Shown here: positions 36,830 to 63,534 of the stretch, piece after piece
Position numbering within the stretch: the stretch's first letter is position 1
Layout: every line of letters starts with the position of its first letter
Translations under genes and position numbers: made by a program
Notes under the pieces: model-generated
What the model saw: the letters and a program-made list of their open reading frames with translations, nothing else
Database searches by the model: none
What the model was told of the DNA's origin: nothing
NCBI RefSeq assembly: GCF_024978135.1
Contig: NZ_JANTEZ010000004.1
Span: 434,001 to 498,000 of the forward strand
Length of the DNA stretch: 64,000 bases
Direction: 5' to 3'
Source of the DNA: Herbiconiux gentiana
GTDB lineage: Bacteria > Actinomycetota > Actinomycetes > Actinomycetales > Microbacteriaceae

Positions 36830-38167
36830 TCAGGCGAGGTCGGGCAGCTCGCTGAAGGCCTGGTCGTAGATCGCCAGGGCCCGCTCCGCCTCGGCGTCGG
36901 TGACGACGCACGGCGGCACCACGTGCAGGCGGTTGTCTGCCGTGAACGGCAGCAGGCCGAGCGAGAGCAGCTTCCCCTTCAGCGCCGCGACGCCGGCCGC
37001 GGAGAGCGGTGTCCGCGCATCCGCGTCGCTGACCAGGTCGAGCGCCCAGAACACGCCGAGCCCGCGCACCTCGCCGATCACGGCGTGCTTCTCGGCCAGC
37101 GCCTCGAGGCCCGGGCCGAGGATGTCGCGCCCGATGTGCGCGGCGTTGTCGACGATGCCCTCCGACTCCATCGCGTCGATGGCCCCCACGATGGCGGCCA
37201 TGGCGAGCGGATGCCCGGAGTACGTCAGCCCGCCCGGGAACACGGCGTCGTCGAAGATCTCGGCGATGGCGGGGCTGATGATCACACCGCCGGCGGGCAC
37301 GTAGCCGGAGTTCACGCCCTTGGCGAAGGTGATCAGGTCGGGCTCGACGAACGAGCCGTCCTCGGCGGTGAGGCTCTGGAAGGCGAACCACGACCCGGTG
37401 CGACCGAAGCCGGCCATCACCTCGTCGAAGATCAGCACGATGCCGTGCTTGTCGGCCAGCGCCCGCACGCCTTCGAGGTAGCCGGGCGGCGGCACCAGCA
37501 CGCCGGCGGTGCCGGGCACCGTCTCCAGCAGGATGGCGGCGATCGAGGCGGCGCCCTCCGACACGATCACGCGCTCGAGGTGCTGCAGCGCGCGGGCCGA
37601 CTCCTCTTCCGGGCTCGTCGACCAGAAGTCGGAGCGGTAGGCGAAGGGGCCGAAGAAGTGGGCGTGCCCGCGGGAGTACTCGTTCGGCACGCGGCGCCAG
37701 TCGCCGGTGGCGACCACCGCGGCTCCGGTGTTGCCGTGGTAGCTGCGGTAGGTCGAGAGCACCTTGTCCCGGCCGGTGAACAGGCGGGCCATCCGGATGG
37801 CGTTCTCGTTCGCATCCGCACCGCCGTTGGTGAAGAAGACCTTGCTGTAGCTGCTGCCCGCCTTGTCGAGGATGCGCTGGGCGGCCTTGCCTCGCGTGAG
37901 GTTGGCGGCGGCCGGGGCGACCGTGGTGAGCACGTCGGCCTGCTCCTTGATGGCGGCGACGACGGCGGGGTGCTGGTGGCCGATGTTCGTGTTCACCAGC
38001 TGCGAGGAGAAGTCGAGGTACTCGGTGCCCTCGTAGTCCCAGACCGTGGAGCCGAGCCCGCCGGCGATGACCATCGGCTTGAGCGAGGCCTGGGCCGACC
38101 AGGAGTGGAACACGTGGGCGCGGTCGAGCTCGAGGGCGAGCTGCTGGTCGGCGGGGTCGAGATCCAT
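36830..38167 (-). CDS. Omega-amino acid aminotransferase (beta-alanine type)
   Basis: The 445-residue class III PLP enzyme has FDEVMAGFGRTG for the PLP-binding Asp and FAKGVNSGYVPAGGV for the PLP Lys; FFTNGGADANENAIRMAR is the phosphate-binding part. Class III enzymes transfer distal amino groups. Ending an operon with dihydropyrimidinase and ureidopropionase, it fits beta-alanine or 3-aminoisobutyrate transamination to malonic or methylmalonic semialdehyde. Other omega-amines remain possible. The binding-protein gene lies 75 bases upstream. Confidence 0.85.
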   Translation of the reverse strand: MDLDPADQQLALELDRAHVFHSWSAQASLKPMVIAGGLGSTVWDYEGTEYLDFSSQLVNTNIGHQHPAVVAAIKEQADVLTTVAPAAANLTRGKAAQRILDKAGSSYSKVFFTNGGADANENAIRMARLFTGRDKVLSTYRSYHGNTGAAVVATGDWRRVPNEYSRGHAHFFGPFAYRSDFWSTSPEEESARALQHLERVIVSEGAASIAAILLETVPGTAGVLVPPPGYLEGVRALADKHGIVLIFDEVMAGFGRTGSWFAFQSLTAEDGSFVEPDLITFAKGVNSGYVPAGGVIISPAIAEIFDDAVFPGGLTYSGHPLAMAAIVGAIDAMESEGIVDNAAHIGRDILGPGLEALAEKHAVIGEVRGLGVFWALDLVSDADARTPLSAAGVAALKGKLLSLGLLPFTADNRLHVVPPCVVTDAEAERALAIYDQAFSELPDLA

Positions 38168-38242
38168 GGTGCGTTCTTTCTGTGTGTGGTGCGGGTGGTG
38201 AGGGAGGGTGACGCTGCCGCCACCCTCCCTTGTGACGAGTGG

Positions 38243-39406
38243 CTACTCGCCGCCCTCCTTGAGGGTGACGTCGATGGGCGTGAAGCCCTCGCCCATCACG
38301 TCGACGCCCTCGTCCTTGAGCTCGGAGAGCGCCTTCTCCACGTACTCGTTCGAGAACGCGGTGGCCGGCGGCTCCTCCGAGATGACGGTCGCGCCGGTCT
38401 CGTTGGGGGTGTCCATGGCGATCTTCACCGTCTGGTCCCACTGGTCCTGGTTGATCGTGCCGACACCCGAGGTGGAGGGCCAGATCAGCTTGTTGACCTC
38501 GTTGGTCATCCAGAGCTGGTGGCTCTCACCGAGCTGCGAGCCCGAGGCGGTGACGATCTTCGCGGCGTCCTCGGCGTTGTCGCGGGCGTAGGCCCAGCCC
38601 TTGATCGACGCCTTGATGAACTTCACCGTGGTGTCGGCATAGGCCGAGTCGTCGGCGAGGCGGTCGGAGTCGGCCCAGATGGCGTCCTGGAGCATCGCGG
38701 TGCCCTCGGTGTTCCAGTCGATGACGTTCAGCTCGTCGGGGGTGAAGAGCTTGCCGGTGGACGGGTTCTTCGTCTCCAGCACCTGCGCGTACTCGTTGTA
38801 CGTCATGGCCTGGGCCGCGTCGATGTCGCCGGCGAGGAAGCCGTTCATGTCGAACGCCTGTGCGACCAGTGAGATGTCGTCGAGCTTCACGCCGGCCTTG
38901 TTCATCCCGGCGAACAGCTCCCACTCGTTGCCGTAGCCCCAGCTGCCGACCGTCTTGCCCTTGAGGTCGGCGGCCGAGGTGATGTTCTTGTCCTTCATCG
39001 AGATCTGCGTGGTGCCGGAGCGCTCGAAGATCTGCGCGACGTCGGTCACGGCCGCGCCCTGCTCGATCGAGCCGAGCACCTTCGGCACCCACGAGATCGC
39101 GTAGTCGGCGTCGCCGCCCGTGAGCACGTCGATCGGCACGATGTCGGTCGCGCCCTCGAGGATGGTGACGTCGAGTCCCTCGTCCTCGTAGAAGCCCTGG
39201 TCGAGGGCCGCGTAGTAGCCGGCGAACTGGGCCTGCGAGAACCACTGCAGCTGCAGCGAGACGGGGGTGAGGTCGCCTGAGGCCGCCGAGTCGGTGGAGT
39301 CGGACGAACCGCCGCTCGAGCATCCGGTGAGCACGATCGCGGTGGCGGCCAGGGCGCCGATGCCGCCGATGACACGGGAGCGGGTGAGACGTGTGCTGTG
39401 TTTCAT
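38243..39406 (-). CDS. NMT1/THI5-like ABC substrate-binding lipoprotein
   Basis: The 387-residue lipoprotein has an N-terminal signal ending in a LTGCSSGG lipobox. The mature part begins LQLQWFSQAQFAGYYAALDQGFYEDEGLDV (in pieces), the classic opening of NMT1/THI5-type proteins such as ThiY, which bind pyrimidines of thiamine breakdown. That family and the operon context support a pyrimidine or hydantoin ligand. It serves the two permeases and ATPase encoded just upstream in the same operon. Confidence 0.88.
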   Translation of the reverse strand: MKHSTRLTRSRVIGGIGALAATAIVLTGCSSGGSSDSTDSAASGDLTPVSLQLQWFSQAQFAGYYAALDQGFYEDEGLDVTILEGATDIVPIDVLTGGDADYAISWVPKVLGSIEQGAAVTDVAQIFERSGTTQISMKDKNITSAADLKGKTVGSWGYGNEWELFAGMNKAGVKLDDISLVAQAFDMNGFLAGDIDAAQAMTYNEYAQVLETKNPSTGKLFTPDELNVIDWNTEGTAMLQDAIWADSDRLADDSAYADTTVKFIKASIKGWAYARDNAEDAAKIVTASGSQLGESHQLWMTNEVNKLIWPSTSGVGTINQDQWDQTVKIAMDTPNETGATVISEEPPATAFSNEYVEKALSELKDEGVDVMGEGFTPIDVTLKEGGE

Positions 39407-39491
39407 GTCGTTCCTCCTCTGGTGGTGCGCGGGGTGGTGCGGGTGGGTGGTGCGGGTGGTGCAGCTCGGGGGCCGGCGTCGACGGCGCGGC

Positions 39492-40261
39492 TCAGGTGCG
39501 CGGCTTGTAGTGCCGCGTCGCGAAGGTCTCGATCGCGAGGGTGACGCAGTAGAACACGAGACCGACGATGATGGCGCCGAGCACGTAGGCCCAGGCGAGG
39601 TTGTAGTTCGACGACGACGCCGCCGAGGTGATCGACTTGCCGAGCCCGCCGACCGGCCCGCCGAAGTACTCCGCGATCAGGGCCGAGATCACGGCGAGGC
39701 TCGAGGCGATCCGCAGCCCGGTGAAGATGAACGGCAGCGCTCCGGGCACGGTCACCGTGCGGGTCGTCTGCCAGGCGGATGCCGCGTAGACGTGCATCAG
39801 GTCGCGATGCACCGGGCGCACCTGCCGCAGACCCCGCAGCGTGTTGATGTAGACCGGGATGAACACCGCGAGCGCCGCCACCAGCTGCCGCGCGGTCTCC
39901 GCACCGGCCCCGAACATCGTGTACAGCACGGGCGCCAGCGCCACGATCGGCACGACGGCGAGGGCCGCGACCAGGCCGGCGGTGAGCTCGTCGACCACCC
40001 GCGCCAGGGCGGCGAGCACGGCGAACAGGATGCCCACGACCCCGCCGATGACGAGCCCCACGAGGGCGTTGCCTCCGGTGACCAGTGCGCCCGCCACCAC
40101 GGAGGAGATGTTGTCGCCGAACTCGGTGCCGATCGCCAAGGGCCCGGGTACGATGAACGGCTTGATGTCGAACGCGACCACGAGCAGCTGCCAGAGGGCG
40201 AGCGCCACGACGCCGAGGATCACCGGCGCGAGCACGGTGCGCAGGGAGCCGGCGGAGGCCC

Positions 40262-40265
<4 letters not shown>
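39492..40265 (-). CDS. ABC transporter permease (second permease)
   Basis: A 257-residue membrane protein with about six helices and the ATPase-docking loop around YAASAWQTTRTVTVPGALP. With the other permease of 308 residues it should form a heterodimeric channel. The start overlaps the ATPase stop by four bases. The binding-protein gene follows 85 bases downstream, a longer gap than elsewhere in this operon. Confidence 0.88.
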
Positions 40266-41094
<829 letters not shown>

Positions 41095-41098
<4 letters not shown>

Positions 41099-42021
41099 GC
41101 GGGCACCTCCCCTCTGCGGAAGCGCCGGAGCAGGACTCCGAGCAGGGCGATGAAGCCGGCGGCCACGAGGCCGACGGCGATGGCGCCGAAGATCGGCGCC
41201 CAGGTCTTGGCCGGGTCGCCCGAAGCCTGCTGGGCGAACTCGATGATCATCCGGCCGATGCCGCCGCGGAGGCCGATCGAGACCTCGGCGACCACGGTGC
41301 CGATCACGGCGTTAGCGGCCGCTAGCCGGAGGGCCGGCAGCAGGTACGGCACGCTCGCCGGCAGGCGCAGCGTGAACAGCGTCTTCCACCAGCCGACGCC
41401 GTAGCTGCGGAACAGCTCCACGTGGATGGCATCGGGCGAGTTGAGGCCGCGGAGCGCGCCGATCGACACCGGGAAGAAGGCGAGGTACGACGCGATGATC
41501 GCGACCGACATCCAGCTCTCCCAGGTGAAGTCGCCGAACTCGAGCTGGGCGCCCCAGCGCCGCACGAGCGGGGCGATCGCGATCAGCGGCACGGTCTGGC
41601 TCAGCACGATCCAGGGCAGCACGGCCGACTCGGCGGTGCGGAAGCGCTGCATCAGGATCGCTAGCAGCATGCCCACCACGACGCCGACGACCCAGCCGAC
41701 CGCGGCCACGCCGAGTGTGAAGACGGCCGCCTGGGCGACGGCGAGCCAGACGGGCTGGGCGTTCCGCCCGTTGCCCGACTGCTCGAACAGTCGCCCGATC
41801 ATGTCCCAGACGTGGGGCATCGCCAGGTCGGTCGTTCGCGGCAGCACGGTGAGGTCGCCGATCATCACACCGGTGGCCGGACCGATCGCCTTGTAGAGCT
41901 CCCAGGCGACCACGACGAGCAGCACCCCGCCCGCGCCGAACGCGACCCGCGTCGCGGTCGTGCCCGAACGCCGCGCGCCGCGCCGGCGCTCGGGGGTGCC
42001 CGTCGGGGAGGTTCCGGTCAT
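41095..42021 (-). CDS. ABC transporter permease (first permease)
   Basis: A 308-residue permease: basic N-terminal segment, about six hydrophobic helices, and an EAA-like loop near ELFRSYGVGWWKTLFTLRLPASVP. It pairs with the 257-residue permease of the same operon. It is longer than its partner mainly because of an extra periplasmic part after the first helix. Start and stop overlap neighbours by four bases each. Confidence 0.9.
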
Positions 42022-43034
42022 GCCTTGGCCGTGATGTGGTCGCGAAGGGCCGGCATCACGGTCTCGCCGTACACGCGGAGGGTCTCCTCCTTGTTGTCGT
42101 GCTGCAGGTAGCCCGCGAACTGCGTCACGCCGATCTCGGCGTACTGCTTCAGCTTCTCGATGTGCTGCTCGGCGGTGCCGAGCACGCAGAAGCGGTCGAC
42201 GATGTCGTCGGGCACGAAGCTCGTGTGGCTGTTGCCCGCGCGGCCGTGCTCGTTGTAGTCGTAGCCTTCACGATCCTTGATGTAGGAGGTGAGCGCCTCG
42301 GGCACGTCGCTGCTCTCGCCGTACTTCGCCACGATGTCGGCCACATGGTTGCCCACCATGCCGCCGAACCAGCGGCACTGGTCGCGCATGTGCTCCCAGT
42401 CGTCGCCGATGTACATCGGGGCGGCCACGCAGAACGCGATCTCGTCGGGGTCGCGCCCGACGTTCTCGGCCGCCTTCCGCACCGTGGCGATCATCCACTT
42501 GGCGATGTCGATGTCGCCGCACTGCAGGATGAAGCCGTCGCCGACCTCTCCCGTGAGCTTGAGGGCGAGCGGGCCGTACGCCGCCACCCACAGGTCGAGC
42601 GACGAGCCCTTGCTCCAGGGGAACTGCAGCGTGGCGCCGTTGTACTCGACCGAGCGCGAGTTCGCGAGCTCCCGGATGACGTGGATCGACTCGCGGAGGG
42701 TCTTCAGCGTCGTGGGGGCGCCGTTGGTGACCCGCACCGCCGAGTCGCCGCGGCCGATGCCGCAGATGGTGCGGTTGCCGTACATCTCGTTGAGGGTCGC
42801 GTAGACCGAGGCCGTGACCGTCCAGTCCCGGGTGGCCGGGTTGGTGACCATGGGGCCGACCTTGATCTTGTTCGTCTCGGCCAGGATCTGGCTGTAGATG
42901 ACGTACGGCTCCTGCCAGAGCAGGTGCGAGTCGAAGGTCCAGAAGTAGTCGAAGCCGTACTGCTCGCTGAGCTTGGCGAGCCCGACGGTGCGGGCTGCCG
43001 GGGGGTTGGTCTGAACGACCGCGCCGAAATCCAT
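42018..43034 (-). CDS. F420-dependent LLM-class oxidoreductase (CPS_4043-type)
   Basis: The 338-residue luciferase-like TIM-barrel protein opens with DFGAVVQTNPPAARTVGLA and continues with FDYFWTFDSHLLWQEPY, and has the GRGDSAVRVTNGAP and GDGFILQCGD segments, features of the F420-dependent LLM branch named CPS_4043 (TIGR03842). The branch uses F420H2 or F420 for hydride transfer; substrates are unknown. It lies between the dihydropyrimidinase and the importer in a coupled operon, so it likely handles the pyrimidine or hydantoin itself. It could take the place of the missing dihydropyrimidine dehydrogenase, reducing uracil or thymine. Assignment of family is firm, of reaction not. Confidence 0.85.
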   Translation of the reverse strand: MDFGAVVQTNPPAARTVGLAKLSEQYGFDYFWTFDSHLLWQEPYVIYSQILAETNKIKVGPMVTNPATRDWTVTASVYATLNEMYGNRTICGIGRGDSAVRVTNGAPTTLKTLRESIHVIRELANSRSVEYNGATLQFPWSKGSSLDLWVAAYGPLALKLTGEVGDGFILQCGDIDIAKWMIATVRKAAENVGRDPDEIAFCVAAPMYIGDDWEHMRDQCRWFGGMVGNHVADIVAKYGESSDVPEALTSYIKDREGYDYNEHGRAGNSHTSFVPDDIVDRFCVLGTAEQHIEKLKQYAEIGVTQFAGYLQHDNKEETLRVYGETVMPALRDHITAKA

Positions 43035-43052
43035 GTGGTGTCCTGTCGTTCG

Positions 43053-44486
43053 TCAGATCAAGTACTGGCTGAGGCCGCGCTTGAAGTACGCGCCGTCGCC
43101 CTTGCGGCCGAGGTAGCTGTCGTCGTCGACGATCATCCGCCCGCGGGAGAACACGGTGTCGACGTGGCCGTCGATCTCGTAGCCCTCCCACGCCGAGTAG
43201 TCCATGTTCATGTGGTGCGTCTTGCCCACGCCGATCGAGGTGTGCCCGTTCGGGTCGTAGATCACCACGTCGCCGTCGGCCCCGGGCTGGATGACGCCCT
43301 TCTTGCCGTAGATGCCGAACATCCGCGCCGGCGTGGTGCTCGTCAGCTCGACCCAGCGGGGCAGGCTGATCTCGCCCATCACGACACCCTGGTAGATCAG
43401 GTCCATCCGGTGCTCGACCGAGCCGATGCCGTTCGGGATCTTCGAGAAGTCCGCCAGCCCCATGTCCTTCTGGCCCTTCATGCAGAAGGGGCAGTGGTCG
43501 GTCGAGATGACCTGCAGGTCGTTGGTGCGAAGGCCCTGCCACATGTGGTGCTGGTGACCCTCGTGCTTCGAGCGCAGCGGGGTCGAGCAGACCCACTTCG
43601 CGCCCTCGAAGTCGCCCCATTCGGGGCTGGATGCTCCGAGCTGGTCCTCGAGCGAGAGGTAGAGGTACTGCGGGCAGGTCTCCGCGAACACGTTCTGGCC
43701 GTTGTCGCGGGCCGCGGCGATCTGCTCGACCGCCTGCTTGGCGCTGACGTGGACGATGTAGAGCGGCGCCCCCGTCAGGTTCGCGAGCATGATCGCGCGA
43801 TGCGTCGCCTCCTCCTCGGCCTGCCACGGGCGCGAGACGCCGTGGTAGTAGGGGGTGGTCTCGCCGCGCTCGAGGTGCTGCTTCACCAGCAGGTCGATGA
43901 CCGAGCCGTTCTCGGCGTGCATCATGATCAGCGAGCCGTTGTCGGAGGCCCGCTGCATCGCCTTGACGATCTGGCCGTCGTCGCTGAGGAACACGCCCTT
44001 GTAGGCCATGAACAGCTTGAACGACGTGACACCCTCGTTGATCAGCTCGTCCATCGCGGTGAGCGAGGAGTCCTGCACGTCGGACAGGATCTGGTGGAAG
44101 CCGTAGTCGACCGCGCACTGCCCGGCCGCCTTTCCCTGCCAGAGGTTGTACTGGTCGAGGATGTTCTCTCCGGCGTACTGCACGACGAAGTCGATGATCG
44201 ACGTGGTGCCGCCATGGGCGGCCGCGCGGGTGCCGGTCTCGAAGGTGTCGCTCGCCTCGGTGCCGCCGAACGGCATCTGCATGTGCGTGTGCGCGTCGAT
44301 GCCGCCCGGTATGACGTACTTGCCGGTCGCGTCGACGACCTGGTCGACGTTCCGCTCGATGTCGAAGCCGAGCAGGGTGCTGCCCGGGGCGAGCACCGCG
44401 GCGATGGTCTCGCCGTCGATCAGCACGTCGGCCGTGGCAGTGCCGGTGGCGTTGACGACCGTGCCGCCCTTGATGAGGGTCTTCAT
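43053..44486 (-). CDS. hydA: Dihydropyrimidinase (hydantoinase family)
   Basis: The 477-residue dinuclear amidohydrolase opens dihydrouracil, dihydrothymine or 5-substituted hydantoins. H66-T-H68 in DAHTHMQMPFGG, the carboxylated K157 in SFKLFMAYKG, later histidines in VHVSAK and the Asp in STDHCPF are all present. ATG at 44486 gives the usual start MKTLIKGGTVV. It lies 18 bases downstream of the ureidopropionase-like gene in the same transcript. Stereochemistry or a hydantoin preference cannot be told from sequence. Confidence 0.93.
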   Translation of the reverse strand: MKTLIKGGTVVNATGTATADVLIDGETIAAVLAPGSTLLGFDIERNVDQVVDATGKYVIPGGIDAHTHMQMPFGGTEASDTFETGTRAAAHGGTTSIIDFVVQYAGENILDQYNLWQGKAAGQCAVDYGFHQILSDVQDSSLTAMDELINEGVTSFKLFMAYKGVFLSDDGQIVKAMQRASDNGSLIMMHAENGSVIDLLVKQHLERGETTPYYHGVSRPWQAEEEATHRAIMLANLTGAPLYIVHVSAKQAVEQIAAARDNGQNVFAETCPQYLYLSLEDQLGASSPEWGDFEGAKWVCSTPLRSKHEGHQHHMWQGLRTNDLQVISTDHCPFCMKGQKDMGLADFSKIPNGIGSVEHRMDLIYQGVVMGEISLPRWVELTSTTPARMFGIYGKKGVIQPGADGDVVIYDPNGHTSIGVGKTHHMNMDYSAWEGYEIDGHVDTVFSRGRMIVDDDSYLGRKGDGAYFKRGLSQYLI

Positions 44487-44505
44487 GACTGCCTCTCCCC
44501 CGGGC

Positions 44506-45354
44506 CTACGGTGCGACGATCTCGCCGTAGGCGTCGGGGCGACGGTCGCGGTAGAACTGCCAGTCGTCGCGGGTGTCGCGGATGGCGTCGAGGTCGAGGT
44601 CGCGCACGAGCAGCTCCTCGTGCTCGCTCGATCCGAGCTCGCCGACGTAGTTGCCGCGCGGGTCGACCACGTAGCTGGTGCCGTAGAAGTCGACGGCGAG
44701 GTCGCCGTATTCGTTGTCCTCCTTGCCGACGCGGTTCGGCACGAGCACGAAGTACTGGTTCGCACCGGCCGCCGCGGGGCCCTCGAGCTCCCAGAGGCGG
44801 TTCGACAGACCGGGCTTGGAGGCGTTGGGGTTGAAGACGATCTGGGCGCCGTTCAGGCCGAGCTCGCGCCAGCCCTCGGGGAAGTGGCGGTCGTAGCAGA
44901 TGTGCACACCCACCTTGCCGACGGCGGTGTCGAAGACGGGGTAGCCGAGGTTGCCGGGGCGGAAGTAGAACTTCTCGTAGAAGCTCTCGAGGTGCGGGAT
45001 GTGATGCTTGCGGTACTTGCCCACGACCGTGCCGTCGGCGTCGACGACCACGGCGGTGTTGTAGTAGACGCCGGTCTGCTCCTCCTCGTAGATCGGGAGG
45101 ATCGTGACCATGTTGAGCTCCTTGGCCAGGGCGGCGAAGCGCTGCACGATCGGGCCGTCGGCCGGCTCGGCGTAGCGGTAGTACTTCTTGTCCTGGGTGA
45201 TGCCGAAGTAGGGCCCGTAGAACAGCTCCTGGAAGCAGATCACCTGCGCGCCCTGGGCGGCCGCGTCGCGCATGAACTGCTCGTGCTTGTCGAGCATCGA
45301 CTCCTTGTCGCCCGTCCAGGTGGTCTGGGATATCGCCGCGCGGATCGTCGTCAT
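44506..45354 (-). CDS. Nitrilase-superfamily hydrolase (beta-ureidopropionase type)
   Basis: The 282-residue carbon-nitrogen hydrolase has the triad E43 (FQELFYGPYF), K116 (YRKHHIP) and C153 (HICYDRHFPEG). The FRPG and NLGYPVFDT segments match beta-ureidopropionases and N-carbamoylputrescine hydrolases. With dihydropyrimidinase next to it, the likely reaction is N-carbamoyl-beta-alanine to beta-alanine, CO2 and ammonia. It is the first gene of the nine-gene leftward operon, and its start faces the MocR regulator across 95 bases. Confidence 0.88.
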   Translation of the reverse strand: MTTIRAAISQTTWTGDKESMLDKHEQFMRDAAAQGAQVICFQELFYGPYFGITQDKKYYRYAEPADGPIVQRFAALAKELNMVTILPIYEEEQTGVYYNTAVVVDADGTVVGKYRKHHIPHLESFYEKFYFRPGNLGYPVFDTAVGKVGVHICYDRHFPEGWRELGLNGAQIVFNPNASKPGLSNRLWELEGPAAAGANQYFVLVPNRVGKEDNEYGDLAVDFYGTSYVVDPRGNYVGELGSSEHEELLVRDLDLDAIRDTRDDWQFYRDRRPDAYGEIVAP

Positions 45355-45449
45355 CGGTGGTTCCTTTCGAAGCGTGCTGTGCAGCCGGTTTTGTTATTAT
45401 TCGGCGTGAACATTTCTCGTGTGTTTCAGAGTGTGACGCGAGAGTAAAT
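45355..45449. promoter_or_regulatory. Divergent promoter region, pyrimidine-type operon and MocR
   Basis: The 95-base gap contains the AT-rich stretch TTTTGTTATTATTCG around 45390-45404, rare in this DNA and fit for -10/-35 elements in either direction, and GTTTC at 45423-45427. It separates the leftward catabolic operon from the rightward MocR gene, so one MocR site probably controls both. Confidence 0.6.
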
Positions 45450-46856
45450 ATGTCAAGACTCCCGGGCACCCCCGTCCGGGCCGACGCACCAAGAAGCCGG
45501 GGCAGCATGCTCGAACGGATCGTCGACGCGGTGGAGCACCGCACCCCCGACGGCATCGCCGCCGCCATCTCCCGGCTGATCCGCTCGGGCTCGCTCAGCG
45601 CCGGCGAGCGCCTTCCCACGGTGCGCGACGTCGCCTCGACGCTCGGCGTCAGCCCGGCCACGGTCAGCACGGCCTGGCAGGCGCTCTCGGGGGTCGGCCT
45701 GATCACCTCGCGCGGCCGCGCCGGCAGCTACGTGCTCCAGGCCGCCACCCCGTGGATGCCGCCGCACTTCGGCGAGCTGGCCGGCTCGCACGTCACCGCG
45801 CGGCTCGACCTCTCGACCGGCACACCCGACCCGTCCCTGCTGCCCGACCTCTCGCTCGCGCTCACCAAGGTGCCCACCCGGGCCGACACCGCCAGCTACC
45901 TCAGCTCCCCGGTGCTTCCCGGGCTCGAGAAGCACCTGCGCGCATCCTGGCCCTACCCCGTCGCGGCGCTGACGATCGTCGACGGCGCCCTCGACGCCAT
46001 CTCGCGCTCGCTCGAGTCGCTCGTGCGCTTCGGCGACCGGGTGGTGGTCGAGAACCCGACGTTCCCGCCGTTCCTCGACCTGCTCGAGACGCTCGGGGCC
46101 GAGCGGCTGCCGGTCGACGTCGACGACGAGGGGATGCTCCCGGCACGCCTCGCGGACGCCCTCGCCCTGGGGCCGGTCGCGATCATCCTGCAGCCCCGGG
46201 CGCACAACCCCACGGGCATGTCGATGAGCGCGGGGCGGGCGCGGGAGCTGTCGCGGGTGCTGCGCGCGCACGACCACGTCTGCGACCCCGTGGTGATCGA
46301 GGACGACCACTCGGGCGAGATCTCGTCGAGCCCGGCGCACAGCCTCGGCAGCTGGCTGCCGAACCGCACCCTGCACGTGCGCAGCTTCGCGAAGTCGCAC
46401 GGCCCCGACCTCCGCATCGCGGCGCTCGGCGGGCCCGAGGCGCTGATCGACCGCATCGTGGCGCGGCGGCTGCTCGGGCCCGGCTGGACGTCGCGCATGC
46501 TGCAGACGATCCTCTACGAACTGCTCACCGCTCCCGCCTCGGTCGACACCGTGCACGACGCGCGGCGCATCTATCAGGCGCGGCAGCGGCTGCTCTCCGA
46601 GGCGCTGGTCGAGCAGGGGCTGCCGCACGCGCCCTCCGACGGCATCAACACCTGGCTGCCGGTGGCCGACGAGAAGGCGGCCATCCTCACCCTGGCCGCG
46701 AGCGGCATCCGGGTGGCGGCGGGTGCGTCGTTCGTGGCTGCGCCGCCGGTTCCGGATGCGCGGCCGCCCCAGTTCCTCCGCGTGACCGCGGGCCGTGTCG
46801 CCGCCGACTTCGACGAGGTCGCCGCCCTCCTGGCGGTCGCCGCCCGCGCCGAGTAG
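45450..46856 (+). CDS. MocR-type GntR/aminotransferase regulator
   Basis: The 468-residue protein joins an N-terminal GntR winged helix (GSLSAGERLPTVRDVASTLGVSPATVSTAW) to a class I aminotransferase fold. The PLP-binding Lys lies in RSFAKSHGPDLR and the Asp in VIEDDHSGE, so PLP binding is likely. MocR regulators sense amino compounds, as with GabR and beta-alanine-responsive members. Divergent from the catabolic operon, it probably responds to beta-alanine or a related product. ATG 45450 gives a short leader; a later ATG at 45507 is possible. Confidence 0.85.
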   Translation: MSRLPGTPVRADAPRSRGSMLERIVDAVEHRTPDGIAAAISRLIRSGSLSAGERLPTVRDVASTLGVSPATVSTAWQALSGVGLITSRGRAGSYVLQAATPWMPPHFGELAGSHVTARLDLSTGTPDPSLLPDLSLALTKVPTRADTASYLSSPVLPGLEKHLRASWPYPVAALTIVDGALDAISRSLESLVRFGDRVVVENPTFPPFLDLLETLGAERLPVDVDDEGMLPARLADALALGPVAIILQPRAHNPTGMSMSAGRARELSRVLRAHDHVCDPVVIEDDHSGEISSSPAHSLGSWLPNRTLHVRSFAKSHGPDLRIAALGGPEALIDRIVARRLLGPGWTSRMLQTILYELLTAPASVDTVHDARRIYQARQRLLSEALVEQGLPHAPSDGINTWLPVADEKAAILTLAASGIRVAAGASFVAAPPVPDARPPQFLRVTAGRVAADFDEVAALLAVAARAE

Positions 46857-46917
46857 CCGCCCGATATCGACAGATCCTCATCACGCTGCTAGCATTGACA
46901 GCAGGGAGGTGGGCGGC

Positions 46918-47175
46918 ATGGCGACCATCACGGTTCGAGACCTCGAAGACGGCACCCGCTATCGGCTGCGGGTGCGGGCCGCGCGCAACGGGCGGTCGAT
47001 GGAGGCCGAGGCGCGGCACATCCTCATGGCAGCGGTCGCCAGCGAGCCGGCCGACACCGCCGGCATCGGAAGTCGCATCCGCTCGATGTTCGCCGACGTC
47101 GGGTACGCCGACGACCTCGCCGACCTGCTGCCAGAGCGCTCGGCCCCGGTCGACCGGGCCGACTTCGATCGATGA
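46918..47175 (+). CDS. FitA-type ribbon-helix-helix antitoxin
   Basis: The 85-residue protein begins with MATITVRDLEDGTRYRLRVRA and ...SMEAEARHIL, the ribbon-helix-helix pattern of FitA/VapB antitoxins, and ends with a flexible acidic tail that would cover the toxin. GGAGGT at 46905-46910 is an ideal ribosome site. It overlaps the toxin gene by four bases and should repress the pair's own promoter. Confidence 0.88.
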   Translation: MATITVRDLEDGTRYRLRVRAARNGRSMEAEARHILMAAVASEPADTAGIGSRIRSMFADVGYADDLADLLPERSAPVDRADFDR

Positions 47176-47591
47176 TCCTGCTCGACACGAACGTGGTCTC
47201 GGAGCTCCTGAGAGCCCGGGCATCCCCCGCGGTCGTCGACTGGGTCGATCAGCAGCCCGCCGACGATCTCTGCCTCTCGGCCGTCACCCTCGCCGAACTG
47301 CTCCAGGGTGTCGCGCTGCTGCGCGCCGGAACGCGGCGGCGCGAGCTCGGACGACGGGTCGCCCACCTGGTTGCCCACGAGTTCGACCGGCGCATCCTGC
47401 CTCTCGACGCCGAGTGCGCGGTCGAGTTCGCCGACGTCGTCTCCTCACGCCGCCGCCTCGGCCGCCCCATCACCCCGTTCGACGCCCAGATCGCGGCGAC
47501 TGCCCGCGTGCACGGCGCCCTCCTCGCCACGCGCAACGAGCGCGACTTCGATCACACCGGCCTCCCGATCGTGAACCCCTGGCTCGGCTGA
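47172..47591 (+). CDS. VapC/FitB-type PIN-domain toxin
   Basis: A 139-residue PIN ribonuclease: ILLDTNVVSELLR contains the first Asp and its TN, VTLAELLQGV the Glu, and PITPFDAQIAATARVHGALLATRNERDF the later acidic residues. It likely cuts tRNA or other RNA when freed from the antitoxin encoded just upstream (ATGA overlap). The pair sits between the pyrimidine-type regulator and cofD, a typical chromosomal addiction-module site. Confidence 0.92.
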   Translation: MILLDTNVVSELLRARASPAVVDWVDQQPADDLCLSAVTLAELLQGVALLRAGTRRRELGRRVAHLVAHEFDRRILPLDAECAVEFADVVSSRRRLGRPITPFDAQIAATARVHGALLATRNERDFDHTGLPIVNPWLG

Positions 47592-47626
47592 GGTCGGCGA
47601 GGGTACGGTCGGCGGGGAGGGCGGGC

Positions 47627-48634
47627 ATGGGATTGAATGGGGGCGTGAAGGTCACGGTGCTCGCAGGCGGTGTCGGAGGTGCACGGTTCCTGAGGGGGCT
47701 GCGCACCCAGCTGAGGAAGGCGTACCCGAACGGCGACGGCGGCTCGACCGCCGAGGTCACCGCGGTCGTGAACACGGGTGACGACATGTGGCTCACGGGC
47801 CTGCGGGTCTGCCCCGACCTCGACTCGATCATGTACACGCTCGGCGGCGCCAACGACGACGAGCGTGGCTGGGGCCGCAAGGGCGAGAGCGAGCGCGTCA
47901 GCGCCGAGCTCACGGCCTACGGCGTGGGCTGGCCGTGGTTCACCCTCGGCGACCTCGACCTCGGCACCCACATCGCCCGCTCGAGCTTCCTGCGCGACGG
48001 CCTCACACTCACCGAGGCCACCGCCCGGCTCGCCGAGCGCTGGAACCTCGGTGTGAAGCTCCTGCCGATGAGCGACGAGCCGGTCGAGACGCACGTCGAG
48101 ATCATCCTCGACGGCAAGCGCCGCATCGTGCACTTCGAGGAGTGGTGGGTGAAGCACCGGGCGGGCGTGCCGGCGCAGCGCTTCATCCAGGTGGGGGCGG
48201 ATGCGGCGAAGCCGACCCCGTCCGTGCGGCGGGCGATCGAGCAGGCCGACGTGATCCTGGTCGCTCCCTCGAACCCGGTGGTGTCGATCGGCACCATCCT
48301 CGGAGTGCCGGGCCTCCGTTCGGCCCTCCGCGAGGCCCGCGCGCCGATCGTCGGGGTCTCCCCCATCATCTCGGGTGCCGCCGTTCGCGGCATGGCCGAC
48401 GCCTGCCTCACCGCGATCGGCGTCGAGACGACGGCCGCCGCGGTGGCGAAGCACTACGGCTCCCGCTCGCGCGGCGGCCTGCTCGACGCGTGGCTGATCG
48501 ACGAGAGCGACGCGGCGAGCGCCCCGGTCATCGAGTCGGCGGGCATCCGCATCTCGGTGGTGCCGCTCTGGATGCGCGACCCCGCCACGAGCACCCAGCT
48601 CGCCGCCGACGCCCTGGCCGCCGCCGCCCGCTAG
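47627..48634 (+). CDS. cofD: 2-phospho-lactate transferase (F420-0 synthesis)
   Basis: The 335-residue enzyme (FbiA in actinobacteria) joins the lactate- or enolpyruvate-phosphate part to deazaflavin FO. G14-G-V-G-G-A-R opens the fold, GDDMWLTGLRVCPDLDSIMYTLGG is the metal/phosphate region, and SNPVVSIGTILGVPG follows. The ATG at 47627 has GGGGAGG at six bases; GTG at 47645 is an alternative. No fbiB follows directly, unlike in mycobacteria; the ligase gene is 13 kb away in this window. Confidence 0.93.
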   Translation: MGLNGGVKVTVLAGGVGGARFLRGLRTQLRKAYPNGDGGSTAEVTAVVNTGDDMWLTGLRVCPDLDSIMYTLGGANDDERGWGRKGESERVSAELTAYGVGWPWFTLGDLDLGTHIARSSFLRDGLTLTEATARLAERWNLGVKLLPMSDEPVETHVEIILDGKRRIVHFEEWWVKHRAGVPAQRFIQVGADAAKPTPSVRRAIEQADVILVAPSNPVVSIGTILGVPGLRSALREARAPIVGVSPIISGAAVRGMADACLTAIGVETTAAAVAKHYGSRSRGGLLDAWLIDESDAASAPVIESAGIRISVVPLWMRDPATSTQLAADALAAAAR

Positions 48635-51056: not shown

Positions 51057-51125
51057 GATGTTCCCCGATTCGTAGTGGTGACGCCATCGTGGCACACGGG
51101 GTGCGCGCGATGCCCCTCCCCATCA

Positions 51126-51179
51126 GGGGGAGGCCGGGCCAGGGGGGAGGCCGGGCCAGGGGGAGGCCGGGCCAGGGGG
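51126..51179 (+). repeat. Three tandem 16-17-base GC repeats
   Basis: Three copies of GGGGGAGGCCGGGCCA (51126-51141, 51142-51158 with one extra G, 51159-51174), then a fading GGGGGT. They lie in the 206-base region between the divergent guaD and fbiC genes, where nothing else is readable apart from leader sequences. Confidence 0.8.
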
Positions 51180-51262
51180 TAGGCTGGCGGCAATCAGGTT
51201 ATGGGTCTGGCTTTGGGCCCCTTCTTCTCTCATCTTCACTTCGAGACTCCAGAGGTTCCCCC

Positions 51263-53932
51263 ATGCCCGAAGATCTTCCGTTCCCCACGAGCACCGGTGT
51301 GCGCCCGACCGGTCGCAGCACCCCGGCCGCGGTCGAGCAGGGCTTCGTCCCGAACGCCTCCGCCATCCGCCGGGCCCTGAAGCGCGCCGAGACCGGTGTC
51401 GCCCTCGACGCGACCGAGGCCGAGACCCTCCTGCACGCCCGCGGCGACGACCTCGAGCGCCTGCTCACCGCCGCGTCCCGGGTGCGCGACGCCGGGCTCG
51501 AGATCGCGGGGCGCCCCGGCGTCATCACGTACTCGCGCAAGGTGTTCATCCCCCTCACCCACCTCTGCCGCGACCGCTGCCACTACTGCACCTTCGTCGA
51601 GACCCCCGGCGGGCTGGCGAAGCAGGGCAAGGCGCCGTTCCTCTCGCCCGACGAGGTGCTCGCGATCGCCCGCGAGGGCGCGGCCCTCGGCTGCAAGGAG
51701 GCGCTGTTCACCCTCGGCGACCGCCCCGAGGATCGCTGGCCCGTGGCCCGCGAGTGGCTCGAGGCCCGGGGCTACGACTCCACCATCGCCTACCTCCGCT
51801 CCGTCGCGATCCTCGTGCTCGAGGAGACCGGCCTCCTCCCCCACCTGAACCCCGGCGTCATGACGTGGGAGGAGATCCAGCGCCTGAAGCCGGTCGCCCC
51901 GTCGATGGGCATGATGCTCGAGACCACCGCCGACCGGCTCTGGTCACAGAAGGGCGGGCCGCACTACGGCTCCCCCGACAAGGACCCGGTGCTGCGCCTG
52001 CGCGTGCTCGAGGACGCGGGCCGCTCGAACGTTCCCTTCACCACCGGCCTCCTGCTCGGCATCGGCGAGAACTACGCCGAGCGGGTCGACGGGATGTTCT
52101 CCATCCGCTCGGCCGCACGCCGGCACGGTCACGTGCAGGAGGTGATCATCCAGAACTTCCGCGCGAAGCCCGCCACCGCCATGATGGCGGCCGACGACCT
52201 GGAGACCCAGGAGTACGTCGCCGCGGTCGCCGTGGCGCGGCTCGTGCTCGGCCCGAAGGCGCGGGTGCAGGCTCCGCCGAATCTGACGGATGCGCGGGAG
52301 CTGTCGCTCCTCGTGCGCGCCGGCATCGACGACTGGGGCGGCGTGTCGCCCCTCACCCCCGACCACGTCAACCCCGAGCGCCCTTGGCCGCACATCGACG
52401 ACCTCGCCCGGCTCACCGCCGAGGCGGGCTTCGAGCTGCGGGAGCGCCTCACCGCGCATCCGCACTTCGTGCGGGCCGAGGAGCCGTGGATCGACCCCCG
52501 GGTGCTCCCCCACGTGCGCGCGCTGGCCGGGCCGGACGGCCTCGCCATCGAGGGCCGGATCCCCGCCGGGCTGCCCTGGCAGGAGCCCGACTGGGGCTCG
52601 AGCTCGAGCGGACGCACCGAGCTGCACACCGAGATCGACACCGTCGGCCGCACGGGCGACCGCCGCAGCGACTTCGAGGACGTGTACGGCGACTGGGCCG
52701 AGCTGCGCGAGCACGTCGGGGCGAACGCCGGAACGGCGCCGCGCGCATCCGGAGACCCCGCCGTGCGCAGCGCCCTGGCCCGCGCCGCGGAGGACCCGGC
52801 CGGGCTGAGCGACGCCGACTACCTCACCCTGCTCGGCGCCGACGGCCCCGACCTCGAGGCTCTGGCCGCCCTCGCCGACGACGTGCGCCGCGCGACCGTG
52901 GGCGACGAGGTCGGCTACGTGGTGAACCGCAACATCAACTTCACGAACGTCTGCTACACCGGCTGCCGCTTCTGCGCCTTCGCCCAGCGGCGCACCGACG
53001 CCGACGCCTACACGCTGTCGATGGAGCAGGTCGGCGACCGCGTCGACGAGGCGTGGATGATCGGGGCCACCGAGATCTGCATGCAGGGCGGCATCCACCC
53101 CGACCTGCCCGGCACGGCCTATTTCGACCTCGCGCGCACGGTCAAGGCGCGGCAGCCCGACATCCACCTGCACGCGTTCAGCCCGATGGAGATCGTGAAC
53201 GGAGCGTCGCGCACCGGGCTGTCGTACCGCGAGTTCCTGCAGGAGGCGAAGGCCGCGGGGCTCGACTCGATCCCGGGCACCGCCGCCGAGATCCTCGACG
53301 ACGACGTGCGCTGGGTGCTCACCAAGGGCAAGCTGCCGGCCGCCGCGTGGATCGAGATCGTCTCGACCGCGCACGACGTGGGGCTGCGTTCGTCGTCGAC
53401 CATGATGTACGGCCACGTCGACAACCCCTCGCACTGGGTGGGGCACCTGCGCACCCTCGCACGGGTGCAGGACGAGACCGGCGGGTTCACCGAGTTCGTG
53501 CTGCTGCCGTTCATCCACATGAACGCGCCCGTGTACCTCGCCGGCGTCGCCCGGCCGGGGCCGACGAGGCAGGAGAACCGGGCCATCCACGCCGTGTCGC
53601 GGCTGATGCTGCACGGGCGCATCGACCACGTGCAGACCTCGTGGGTGAAGCTCGGCAACGCGGGCACGCAGCAGATGCTCGAGGGCGGCGCCGACGACCT
53701 CGGCGGCACCCTGATGGAGGAGACGATCAGCCGCATGGCGGGAGCCGACAACGGCTCCGAGAAGACGGTCGACGAGCTCGAGCGGATGATCGGCGAGATC
53801 GGTCGCGTGCCGGTGCAGCGCACCACGACCTACGGCCGCCCCTCGGCCGAGCGCGTCGCGGTCGCCCGCGAGTTCGCCTCCCAGGGCTTCGCGGCGACGG
53901 GCCGCACCCTCCGCACGAACCTCCTGGCCTGA
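51263..53932 (+). CDS. fbiC: Bifunctional FO synthase
   Basis: The 889-residue fused CofG-CofH enzyme makes the FO deazaflavin from a pyrimidine and tyrosine. Two radical SAM clusters are visible: C102, C106 and C109 in CRDRCHYC (CofG half), and C564, C568 and C571 in CYTGCRFC (CofH half). The second half continues with [16 protein letters not shown] at 51263 gives the usual length. It is transcribed rightward, with a strong hairpin after its stop toward the convergent glpK. Fusion order is the common actinobacterial one. Confidence 0.97.
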
Positions 53933-61555: not shown

Positions 61556-62452
61556 TTAGTTGAAGCGGGCACGCAGGGCGGCGAGCTCCTCCTCGAGCCG
61601 GGCGATCGTGGCGGCGGCCTCGGCGCGGCCCTCCGCGAGGCCGGCGGCGCGGCCCTCCGCGCGGCCCTCCGCGCGGCCCTCCGCGAGACCGGCGGCGCGG
61701 CCCTCCGCGAGCGCCTCGTCGGTGCCGAGCCGGAACATGTCCCCCGGCCCCGTGCGCGACAGCGCCCGCGCGGGGGTGTCGAGGGAGGCTGTGACCGCGT
61801 GCCCGGCTCCGCGCACGAGGGCCACGGGCATCCCGCTCGCCTTGCCCTTCACCAGGTCGCCGGCCGACGCCAGCTCGTCGGCCAGCGCGGCCTGCGTGAC
61901 GGCGAGCTCGTGCCCGAAGCTGTCGCGCGAGCCGCGCAGGTCGTCGAGCACGCGCACACCGGCCGCGCCGATCGCCTGGTCGATCTGGCCCTCGCGCCAG
62001 GCGCGGCCGAGCGTGTCGGAGAGCACGACGCCGAGCTCGACGCCGAACCGCGCCCGCAGCCCGGCGGCGAGCCCGCGTGCCGAGGCGTCGGGGTCGACCG
62101 GCAGCAGCAGCACGGTGCCCGACGGGGTGTTGCTCGCGTCGACCCCGGCCGCGGCCTGCACGATGCCCTGCCGGTTCTCGACGATGCGCGTCACCCCGCC
62201 CGGATGCGCCCGGCTCGCCACGACACGCACGGTCTCGGCGGTGATCGCGTCCTCGCGGTCGGCCGCGGCGATGCGCCGCCCCTCGGCCTTCGACACGATC
62301 TTCGACGTCACGACGAGGACGTCCCCGTCGAGAGGCACCAGCCCCGCCCCCTCGAGCGCGTCACCGATCAGGGCGACCAGGTCGGCGCCCTCCTCGATCT
62401 CGGGCAGGCCGCCGAACGCGACCACCCGCAGCTCCCTCGTCTCCACGCTCAC
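61556..62452 (-). CDS. cofE: Coenzyme F420 gamma-glutamyl ligase (CofE)
   Basis: The 298-residue protein adds glutamate to F420-0. [16 protein letters not shown] opens the family motif, [14 protein letters not shown] and [15 protein letters not shown] bind GTP/metal, and [10 protein letters not shown] follows. It resembles the N-terminal half of actinobacterial FbiB but lacks the C-terminal FMN (nitroreductase) domain that reduces dehydro-F420-0. Instead there is an [11 protein letters not shown] repeat and a short coiled helix ([14 protein letters not shown]). GTG 62452 overlaps the upstream oxidoreductase stop by four bases. Confidence 0.9.
61621..61710 (-). repeat. 12-base in-frame repeat in cofE
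   Basis: Multiple near-copies of GCGCGGCCCTCC (EGRA when read in the gene's frame), some extended by GLA codons, occur in the 3' part of cofE. Their 12-base unit keeps the frame when copy number changes. Confidence 0.75.
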
Positions 62453-63534
62453 CGCCTCAGCTTCGGCAGCACGTCGCGGGCGAAGACGTCGATCCACTCG
62501 CGCTGATTGCGGCCCACGTTGTGCAGGTAGATGCGGTCGAAGCCGAGGTCGGCGTAGCGCTGCAGGTGGGCGAGGTGGGCGTCCGGGTCGGACGAGACGA
62601 TCATCCGGCCCTCGAAATCGCCGGGGCGCACCATCTTCGCGATCTGCTCGAACTCGAACGGCGAGCGGATGTCGGCCTTCGGGAAGCGCATGCCCCCGTT
62701 CGGCCACTCAGTGAGCGCGTTCGTCATGGCCTCCTCGTCGGTCGCGGCCCACGACAGGTGCAGCTGCAGGATGCGCGGCATCCGCGACGGGTCTTTGCCG
62801 GCCTCTCTGGCGCCCTCGTCGAACCGGGCGAACAGGCCGGCGATCTTCTCGAGCGGGGCGCCGACCGTGATCAGGCCGTCGGCGGTGCGGCCGGCGCGTC
62901 TGGCCGTGACCGGGCCGGCGGTCGCGACGTAGATGGGCGGAGGGGTCGGGGGCATCGTCCAGAGGCGGGTCGACTCGAGCTTGAAGAAGGTGCCGGAGTG
63001 CTTGACGTCGCGGCCCGCGGCCGACGCGGTGAACAGCTTCGAGATGACGTCGATGGCCTCGAACATGCGGTTGATGCGCTCGGGGGCCTCGGGCCAGTAG
63101 CCGCCCACGATGTGCTCGTCGAGGGCCTCTCCGGCGCCGATGCCGAGCCAGTGGCGTCCCGGGTACATCGCTTCGAGGGTCGCGGACGCCTGGGCGACCA
63201 CGGCGGGGTGATAGCGGTAGCTCGGCGCGGTGACGCCGGGGCCGAGGTCGCCGCGGGTGCGTTCGCCGAGCGCGGCGAGCACGTTCCAGACGAACGACGA
63301 CTGGCCCTGGCGGGGCACGTAGGGCTGGAAGTGGTCGGCCGCCATCACGCCCTGGAAGCCGCGGGCCTCGGCGTGCACCGCGTGGTCGATCGCGTCGCGG
63401 GGGTGGAACTGCTCGAGCTCGGCGGCGTAGCCGACGGGCACGGTCGGCGGCACGGCCGGCGGCACCGTCACGCTCGGCGCCGCGGGCACGCCCGGCACCA
63501 CCGGCACGCCGGGCTCGCCCGGCACGGCGGTCAC
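62449..63534 (-). CDS. F420-dependent LLM-class oxidoreductase (G6PDH-like)
   Basis: The ~361-residue LLM protein has [26 protein letters not shown] and [15 protein letters not shown], the motifs of the F420-dependent glucose-6-phosphate dehydrogenase-like branch (TIGR03557). It uses F420 as hydride acceptor, giving F420H2. The GTG at 63534 gives a Pro/Val-rich N-terminal extension of about 35 residues not typical of the family; an internal GTG in PTVPVGY is also possible. It is co-translated with cofE (GTGA overlap), tying use and synthesis of the cofactor. Confidence 0.88.

What the first reader, a model, noticed from the sequence alone, without database searches (positions are those of the whole stretch)
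36830..45354. Reductive pyrimidine operon with an F420-type enzyme in place of dihydropyrimidine dehydrogenase
Genes for dihydropyrimidinase, beta-ureidopropionase and an omega-aminotransferase sit in one transcript with a THI5-like importer, but no PydA-type dehydrogenase is present. The only redox enzyme is an LLM-class protein of the F420-dependent CPS_4043 branch, and F420 biosynthesis genes lie just downstream. The inference is that F420H2 may reduce uracil or thymine, or a hydantoin-type ring, in the first step. RutA is also LLM-class and acts on pyrimidines, so the fold can accept such rings.
Basis: partly seen in the sequence, partly recalled or inferred. Interest (0 to 1): 0.85.

Follow-up and report, generated by a model that had tools for sequence, protein, structure and literature searches.

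The report
F420-driven uracil breakdown gene cluster
An actinobacterium appears to break down the RNA/DNA bases uracil and thymine with an enzyme run by the unusual cofactor F420 instead of the textbook enzyme, and many of its relatives that seem unable to make F420 from scratch carry a likely importer for the cofactor near the same genes.

Summary
Observation confirmed. An eight-gene minus-strand operon (45354-36830) encodes a beta-ureidopropionase-like amidase, dihydropyrimidinase, an LLM enzyme (TIGR03842, 579 bits, cutoff 295), a THI5-like ABC importer and a class-III aminotransferase. The 99.84%-complete genome has one PF01180 protein, a PyrD, so no PydA/PreA was found.

Comparison makes the LLM the likely uracil/thymine reductase. 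In 296 Actinomycetota genomes, 59 of 62 with it carry dihydropyrimidinase (28 of 234 without it) and none of the 62 carries PreA. The 80 best named relatives all have dihydropyrimidinase within 9.5 kb. On Leisingera (alphaproteobacterial) plasmids a 42% identical homologue sits with F420 synthesis genes, an NADPH:F420 reductase, Pyd-type genes, an NCS1 symporter and a RutR-like regulator. The closest solved structures are F420-dependent Mer, but Mer's catalytic Glu6 is absent.

Unexpected: in Microbacteriaceae, 28 of 33 genomes with the LLM and CofD but no detected FO synthase carry a FecCD-type importer within 10 kb of CofD; 0 of 29 examined genomes with CofD and FO synthase do. This is a candidate deazaflavin importer.

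Caveats: no biochemistry; 20 of 92 family genomes with the LLM have neither CofD nor CofG.

The parts
44506..45354 (-). CN-hydrolase, beta-ureidopropionase-like amidase (PydC role), first gene of operon
   Evidence: PF00795 220 bits; PDB matches N-carbamoylputrescine amidohydrolase 192 bits, beta-ureidopropionase 174 bits
43053..44486 (-). dihydropyrimidinase (PydB role)
   Evidence: TIGR02033 543 bits, cutoff 393; PDB dihydropyrimidinase 3sfw 466 bits
42018..43034 (-). LLM oxidoreductase TIGR03842, proposed F420H2-dependent uracil/thymine reductase (in place of PydA)
   Evidence: 579 bits, cutoff 295; nearest solved structures F420-dependent Mer
41095..42021 (-). ABC importer permease
   Evidence: PF00528 77 bits
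40262..41098 (-). ABC importer ATPase
   Evidence: PF00005 116 bits
39492..40265 (-). ABC importer permease
   Evidence: PF00528 77 bits
38243..39406 (-). NMT1/THI5-like substrate-binding protein, proposed pyrimidine importer
   Evidence: PF09084 123 bits; PDB 4nmy 74 bits and FAMP-binding 3ix1 51 bits
36830..38167 (-). class-III aminotransferase, proposed beta-alanine/beta-aminoisobutyrate transaminase
   Evidence: PF00202 283 bits; NF004718 715 bits, cutoff 472, named hypothetical protein
45357..46856 (+). MocR-like regulator, divergent; these are ORF limits, true start uncertain
   Evidence: GntR + Aminotran_1_2; a relative near 48 of 80 named LLM loci
47618..48634 (+). CofD, 2-phospho-L-lactate transferase (start approximate)
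   Evidence: TIGR01819 349 bits, cutoff 257
51089..53932 (+). bifunctional FO synthase CofGH/FbiC
   Evidence: NF006687 1464 bits, cutoff 1018
61559..62707 (-). CofE, F420-0:glutamate ligase
   Evidence: TIGR01916 218 bits, cutoff 181

Best explanation
The operon is a reductive pyrimidine degradation pathway whose first step is done by an F420H2-dependent LLM enzyme. Pyrimidine bases enter by the THI5-like ABC importer (an NCS1 symporter in other lineages). The TIGR03842 enzyme passes a hydride from F420H2 to the C5=C6 bond of uracil or thymine, giving the dihydropyrimidine. Dihydropyrimidinase opens the ring, the amidase releases ammonia and CO2, and the aminotransferase turns beta-alanine or beta-aminoisobutyrate into a semialdehyde. 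Shown: gene content, no PydA found, co-occurrence and co-localisation, family membership. Inferred: substrate, direction, cofactor use, and each catalytic step.
For: No PydA in own genome. LLM with dihydropyrimidinase in 59 of 62 genomes, within 10 kb in 47. PreA in 2 of 296 genomes, neither with the LLM, and in one of them (L139) PreA lies with dihydropyrimidinase and an M20 amidase in a cluster without the LLM. Of 39 fetched LLM regions (39 of the 62 genomes, chosen by me), 36 have dihydropyrimidinase, 38 an amidase (26 CN-hydrolase, 13 M20), 28 a pyrimidine-type transporter (15 SBP, 13 NCS1), 8 methylmalonate-semialdehyde dehydrogenase, 0 PreA. Leisingera plasmids: cofGHDCE-npdG-LLM-RutR-like next to pntAB-aminotransferase-M20-hydA-NCS1. 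Paracoccus alcaliphilus plasmid: cofGHDCE-npdG-LLM. Closest structures are F420-dependent Mer; the Val of the F420 cis-peptide loop is present in 208 of 209 homologue ORFs, the other lacking the pattern (some genomes represented more than once; role from passages of PMC11094777). CofD within 20 kb of the LLM in 62 of 71 family genomes with both. In print: a putative F420/FMN oxidoreductase is needed for reduction of the uracil C5=C6 bond of mureidomycin (PMC10714638, passages).
Against: No assay. 20 of 92 Microbacteriaceae LLM genomes have neither CofD nor CofG although the amidase-dihydropyrimidinase-LLM core is present in 18 of the 18 fetched, so F420 would have to be acquired or another cofactor used. 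10 of 62 LLM genomes in the phylum sample lack CofG by model; 7 of these 10 have CofD. 27 of 87 dihydropyrimidinase genomes have neither LLM nor PreA. Mer's catalytic Glu6 is absent, so the proton donor is unknown. The amidase is below the cutoff of its best NCBIfam model (253 vs 410). In the Paracoccus plasmid no dihydropyrimidinase lies in the 25 kb shown.
Confidence: 0.8

Rival explanations
1. The LLM reduces a different ring or C=C/C=N bond (for example a modified or thiamine-type pyrimidine, or an unsaturated hydantoin) whose product is then opened by the dihydropyrimidinase/hydantoinase.
For: The SBP is nearest to 4nmy and the thiamine-pyrimidine binding protein 3ix1; dihydropyrimidinases and D-hydantoinases score alike against the window enzyme (466 and 465 bits).
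Against: NCS1 nucleobase symporters and a RutR-like regulator in other clusters; methylmalonate-semialdehyde dehydrogenase in 8 of 39 regions and 29 of 80 named loci fits thymine and uracil.
Confidence: 0.1
2. The LLM uses FMN, not F420, and acts like RutA or as another flavin monooxygenase.
For: Same superfamily; 20 of 92 family genomes with it lack CofD and CofG.
Against: No RutA-model hit at E 0.001; nearest relatives are F420 enzymes; F420 synthesis is linked in two phyla; ring-opening oxygenation would make a dihydropyrimidinase unnecessary (inference).
Confidence: 0.05
3. The LLM acts elsewhere (for example on a semialdehyde or for redox balance) and the first step is done by an unrecognised enzyme elsewhere.
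For: 27 of 87 dihydropyrimidinase genomes have neither LLM nor PreA, so another solution may exist.
Against: Of the genes I tracked, LLM and dihydropyrimidinase stay while amidase, transporter and dehydrogenase vary; PreA is found in an LLM-less cluster in L139.
Confidence: 0.05

Closest known systems
Reductive pyrimidine degradation (PydA/PreTA, PydB, PydC, PydD)
   Same: PydB, PydC-like and PydD-like steps, transporter, and MMSDH in some relatives
   Different: PydA/PreA (PF01180, FMN/Fe-S) was not found; a non-homologous F420-type LLM sits there
F420-dependent methylenetetrahydromethanopterin reductase (Mer)
   Same: Closest solved structures (135 bits; Foldseek E 5.5e-21); F420-loop Val and active-site Asp retained
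   Different: Catalytic Glu6 of jMer is Val/Thr/Cys here; genomic context is pyrimidine catabolism
Putative F420-dependent yanthine reductase of Chloroflexota uricolytic clusters (PMC12507026, passages)
   Same: PF00296 protein proposed in place of YgfK or the PF01180 reductase UacX for reducing a purine-derived ring
   Different: Purine pathway, other phylum; sequence relation to TIGR03842 not tested here
SSGG-03002/NpsU of mureidomycin/napsamycin (PMC10714638, passages)
   Same: Putative F420/FMN enzyme reducing uracil C5=C6, by genetics and NMR
   Different: Antibiotic tailoring; the in-vitro assay failed in that paper; family relation not tested here
RutA (oxidative uracil ring opening)
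   Same: LLM superfamily, pyrimidine substrate
   Different: FMN/O2 enzyme (recalled); the window LLM gives no TIGR03612 hit; two sub-threshold RutA-like proteins are elsewhere in the genome

Membership tests
TIGR03842 (F420_CPS_4043) | score above curated cutoff 295.45 bits | tested here: met
   579 bits; Leisingera homologue 507 bits
F420-dependent LLM enzymes | non-prolyl cis-peptide loop as F420 backstop | tested here: inconclusive
   Val of the loop in 208 of 209 ORFs, but model confidence next to the loop is low (residues 65-68 under 50) and no coordinates were inspected
F420-dependent LLM enzymes | binding and use of F420 | not testable with these tools
   needs protein
Mer | catalytic Glu at position 6 | tested here: not met
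   V in the window (alignment); V/T/C in the 13 of 14 representatives with a residue there; loss of activity in Glu6Gln from passages of PMC11094777
RutA (TIGR03612) | match to the RutA model | tested here: not met
   absent from the 24 NCBIfam families at E<=0.001
PydA/PreA | PF01180 FMN domain / NF006183 in the genome | tested here: not met
   one PF01180 protein in the genome, read as PyrD; no NF006183 at E 1e-60
Pyd pathway | dihydropyrimidinase (PydB) | tested here: met
   TIGR02033 543 bits, cutoff 393
Pyd pathway | beta-ureidopropionase (PydC) | tested here: inconclusive
   CN-hydrolase near both N-carbamoylputrescine amidohydrolase (192 bits) and beta-ureidopropionase (174 bits)
Pyd pathway | beta-alanine transaminase (PydD) | tested here: inconclusive
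   class-III aminotransferase, NF004718 subfamily of unknown function
FecCD/BtuFCD-type importers (the CofD-linked transporter) | Peripla_BP_2, FecCD and ABC ATPase subunits together | tested here: met
   L168: PF01497 94, PF01032 299, PF00005 116 bits
FecCD/BtuFCD-type importers (the CofD-linked transporter) | transport of FO or F420 | not testable with these tools
   inferred from linkage and co-occurrence only

The most novel reading that the evidence does not exclude
TIGR03842 is an F420H2-dependent dihydropyrimidine dehydrogenase, a non-homologous replacement of PydA in Actinomycetota and Rhodobacterales. In many Microbacteriaceae that lack FO synthase, a FecCD-type ABC importer encoded with CofD takes up the deazaflavin FO (or F420) made by neighbours, so uracil breakdown there depends on a shared cofactor. 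This would be a deazaflavin importer, linked to F420-based nucleobase catabolism.
Probability: 0.55. Interest if true: 0.92.

Novelty: new variant of a known kind. Interest (0 to 1): 0.84.

Why it matters
It would fill the missing first step of pyrimidine catabolism in actinobacteria that lack PydA (2 of 296 sampled genomes have PreA, 62 have TIGR03842), give a function to a family that NCBI types only as a hypothetical equivalog, and give F420 a plain catabolic role in aerobic bacteria. The importer linked to CofD makes deazaflavin sharing between bacteria directly testable. Among the papers listed by full-text searches of the held open-access library (three of these lists were cut: 20 of 174, 20 of 22 and 10 of 40 shown) I saw none stating either; subscription papers and preprints were not searchable.

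Tried and rejected
PydA elsewhere in the genome: none found. RutA pathway: two RutA-like LLMs (378 and 233 bits against a cutoff of 498) lie on other contigs. For the first, three neighbouring ORFs were scanned: one NtaA/DmoA-type monooxygenase and two without an NCBIfam hit at E 1e-30; for the second no neighbour was scanned. I did not exclude that they act on pyrimidines. 'The F420 name is a mislabel because proteobacteria lack F420': rejected by the Leisingera and Paracoccus clusters. Caballeronia plasmid pSBC2-6 holds only a fragment of the LLM near a Zn hydrolase and a short transhydrogenase gene; not used as evidence. M. smegmatis GlnR paper: its hydA passages did not bear on the LLM. 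S. coelicolor paper: only a table entry for SCO6415. F420 uptake: no relevant paper among those listed; review PMC12855090, 12 of 33 passages shown, none on F420 import. Docking to the model was not possible.
Full report
What is there. The eight genes at 45354-36830 (minus strand) are, in order of transcription, a CN-hydrolase amidase, dihydropyrimidinase, a TIGR03842 LLM enzyme, permease, ATPase, permease, an NMT1/THI5-like binding protein and a class-III aminotransferase. Gaps are 19, 18, -4, -4, -4, 85 and 75 nt, so one transcript is plausible. A MocR-like regulator is divergent from 45357. CofD (47618-48634, +), bifunctional FO synthase (51089-53932, +) and CofE (61559-62707, -) follow on that side. 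The named relatives nearest to the window LLM are Herbiconiux (94% identity for the best).

No PydA found. The genome (3.85 Mb, 99.84% complete) has one PF01180 protein, which I read as a class-2 PyrD from its sequence (that reading is from knowledge of PyrD). PreA (NF006183) gave no match at E 1e-60. RutA is not found above cutoff; two sub-threshold RutA-like LLMs exist on other contigs.

Co-occurrence. In 296 Actinomycetota genomes drawn by the tool, TIGR03842 is above cutoff in 62, dihydropyrimidinase TIGR02033 in 87, CofG in 148, PreA in 2. 59 of 62 LLM genomes have dihydropyrimidinase against 28 of 234 others (Fisher p 1e-36, not corrected for relatedness), and in 47 of 62 the two lie within 10 kb (15 family codes, counted by hand). 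52 of 62 have CofG against 96 of 234. Neither PreA genome has the LLM. In one of them (L139) PreA sits with dihydropyrimidinase and an M20 amidase. Counter-results: 27 of 87 dihydropyrimidinase genomes have neither LLM nor PreA; of the 10 LLM genomes without CofG, 7 have CofD, one of these 7 (G280) has a CofH hit above cutoff and another (G290) one just below it.

Anatomy of relatives. Of 80 named loci fetched with an LLM alignment (the best 80 of 558 confirmed; mostly Microbacteriaceae), 80 have dihydropyrimidinase within 9.5 kb, 77 the CN-hydrolase, 58 the aminotransferase, 56 the THI5-like SBP, 0 PreA, and 29 a methylmalonate-semialdehyde dehydrogenase in the locus (that gene was identified). 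In 39 regions (39 of the 62 LLM genomes, chosen by me), 36 have dihydropyrimidinase, 38 an amidase (26 CN-hydrolase, 13 M20-type), 28 a transporter (15 SBP, 13 NCS1), 24 a class-III aminotransferase at a loose threshold, 8 the dehydrogenase, 0 PreA. Transporter and amidase are thus swapped by unrelated proteins while LLM and dihydropyrimidinase stay.

Another phylum. On plasmids of Leisingera aquaemixtae and L. caerulea (Alphaproteobacteria) a 42% identical LLM (507 bits to TIGR03842) is the last gene of cofG-cofH-cofD-cofC-cofE-npdG-LLM. It is followed by a TetR-type regulator nearest to RutR (198 bits, below the RutR cutoff of 368; PF08362 147 bits), and on the other side, on the opposite strand, lie pntA-pntB-aminotransferase-M20 hydrolase-hydA-NCS1 symporter. 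Ten Leisingera records hold the LLM; I read the genes around it in two. No PydA is annotated in the two stretches shown; I did not search the Leisingera chromosomes. Paracoccus alcaliphilus has cofGHDCE-npdG-LLM with an ABC transporter, without dihydropyrimidinase in the 25 kb shown.

The enzyme. Nearest solved structures by sequence are F420-dependent Mer (135 bits). Foldseek of the AlphaFold model (mean pLDDT 83.6) also ranks Mer first. The alignment to jMer places window V63 at the Val of the F420 cis-peptide loop and D97 at the active-site Asp; both are invariant in 14 diverse homologues. V6 takes the place of the catalytic Glu6, and the position is V, T or C in the 13 of 14 with a residue there (jMer roles from passages of PMC11094777). 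So it looks like an F420 enzyme but is not a Mer.

F420 supply in the family, and the unexpected part. In 199 Microbacteriaceae genomes, LLM occurs in 92, CofD in 88 (87 above cutoff), CofG in 46. LLM and CofD coincide in 71, with CofD within 20 kb of the LLM in 62. 33 genomes have LLM and CofD but no CofG at E 1e-60; 20 have LLM but neither; 17 have CofD without LLM. Fetching the CofD regions showed a FecCD-type importer (binding protein, FecCD permease, ATPase; Pfam) within 10 kb of CofD in 28 of the 33, and in 6 of 10 genomes with CofD but neither LLM nor CofG. It was in 0 of 29 examined genomes with both CofD and CofG (29 of 45), where FO synthase itself was in the region in 15 (Fisher p 7e-13 for 28/33 vs 0/29, relatedness not corrected; 18 of 21 genus codes). 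In the 34 cases the four genes share one strand, in 24 as SBP-permease-ATPase-CofD. Two genus codes, g206 and g235, hold both types among the examined genomes: in g235 the genome without CofG has the importer, in g206 none was in the region. Of the 20 genomes with neither CofD nor CofG, 18 were fetched (two incomplete ones not): the amidase-dihydropyrimidinase-LLM core is in 18 of 18, SBP and aminotransferase in 16 of 18 each; 10 of 18 have importer parts in the region and four have a CofE above cutoff. I read this as uptake of FO where CofD is kept, and perhaps of F420 where it is not; for the 8 of 18 without importer parts in the region I have no explanation. The importer was not looked for outside these regions. 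In the 80 named loci its permease occurs in 24, 11 of them with CofD. The nearest solved structure of its binding protein is 4mlz (300 bits), whose ligand I did not examine.

Mechanism, shown and inferred. Shown: gene content, linkage, no PydA found, family membership. Inferred: import of pyrimidine bases, hydride transfer from F420H2 to C6 with protonation at C5, ring opening, amide hydrolysis, transamination, and oxidation of the semialdehyde where the dehydrogenase is present. Uracil and thymine are preferred over hydantoins because of NCS1 symporters, the RutR-like regulator and methylmalonate-semialdehyde dehydrogenase.

What is in print. Searches for CPS_4043, TIGR03842, and F420 with pyrimidine terms listed nothing on this pathway (the lists of 25 and 55 were cut at 20). 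Two precedents were seen as passages: a putative F420-dependent PF00296 yanthine reductase in Chloroflexota in place of YgfK/UacX (PMC12507026), and a putative F420/FMN oxidoreductase needed for reducing the uracil C5=C6 bond of mureidomycin (PMC10714638; its in-vitro assay failed). PydA definitions come from part 1 of 4 of PMC7332683. Searches on F420 salvage or uptake listed no relevant paper (the latter cut at 10 of 40).

Verdict.

Noticed in passing
L168 2846-5717; CofD regions L185, L187-L190, L194-L226, L228: FecCD-type ABC importer within 10 kb of CofD in Microbacteriaceae without detected FO synthase (34 of 43 CofD+/CofG- regions; 0 of 29 CofD+/CofG+), candidate FO/F420 importer.
   Followed up: partly
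L168 820-1722, L169 17906-18901, L171 14410-15231, L172 55-1836: CofE above cutoff near the uracil operon in genomes with neither CofD nor CofG, hinting at salvage of F420 itself.
   Followed up: partly
L142 (G225) about 14492-15477: LLM lies in two overlapping frames (model 1-66 and 64-329) in one genome, a possible frameshift, with the neighbouring operon genes present.
   Followed up: no
window 46795-47591: Two short adjacent plus-strand ORFs between the MocR-like gene and CofD that read to me like an antitoxin and a PIN-domain toxin (recalled resemblance; not scanned).
   Followed up: no
window 49665-51095: Guanine deaminase gene (549 bits) between CofD and FO synthase, minus strand.
   Followed up: no
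G000:C10:672076-673110 (L161) and C1:493941-494963 (L162): Two RutA-like LLM proteins below the RutA cutoff (378 and 233 of 498 bits) elsewhere in the genome.
   Followed up: partly
L120 15001-18991 (Caballeronia sp. SBC2 plasmid): Fragment of a TIGR03842-like gene (75% identity to Leisingera over 128 residues) near a Zn hydrolase and a short transhydrogenase gene: a possible remnant in Betaproteobacteria.
   Followed up: no
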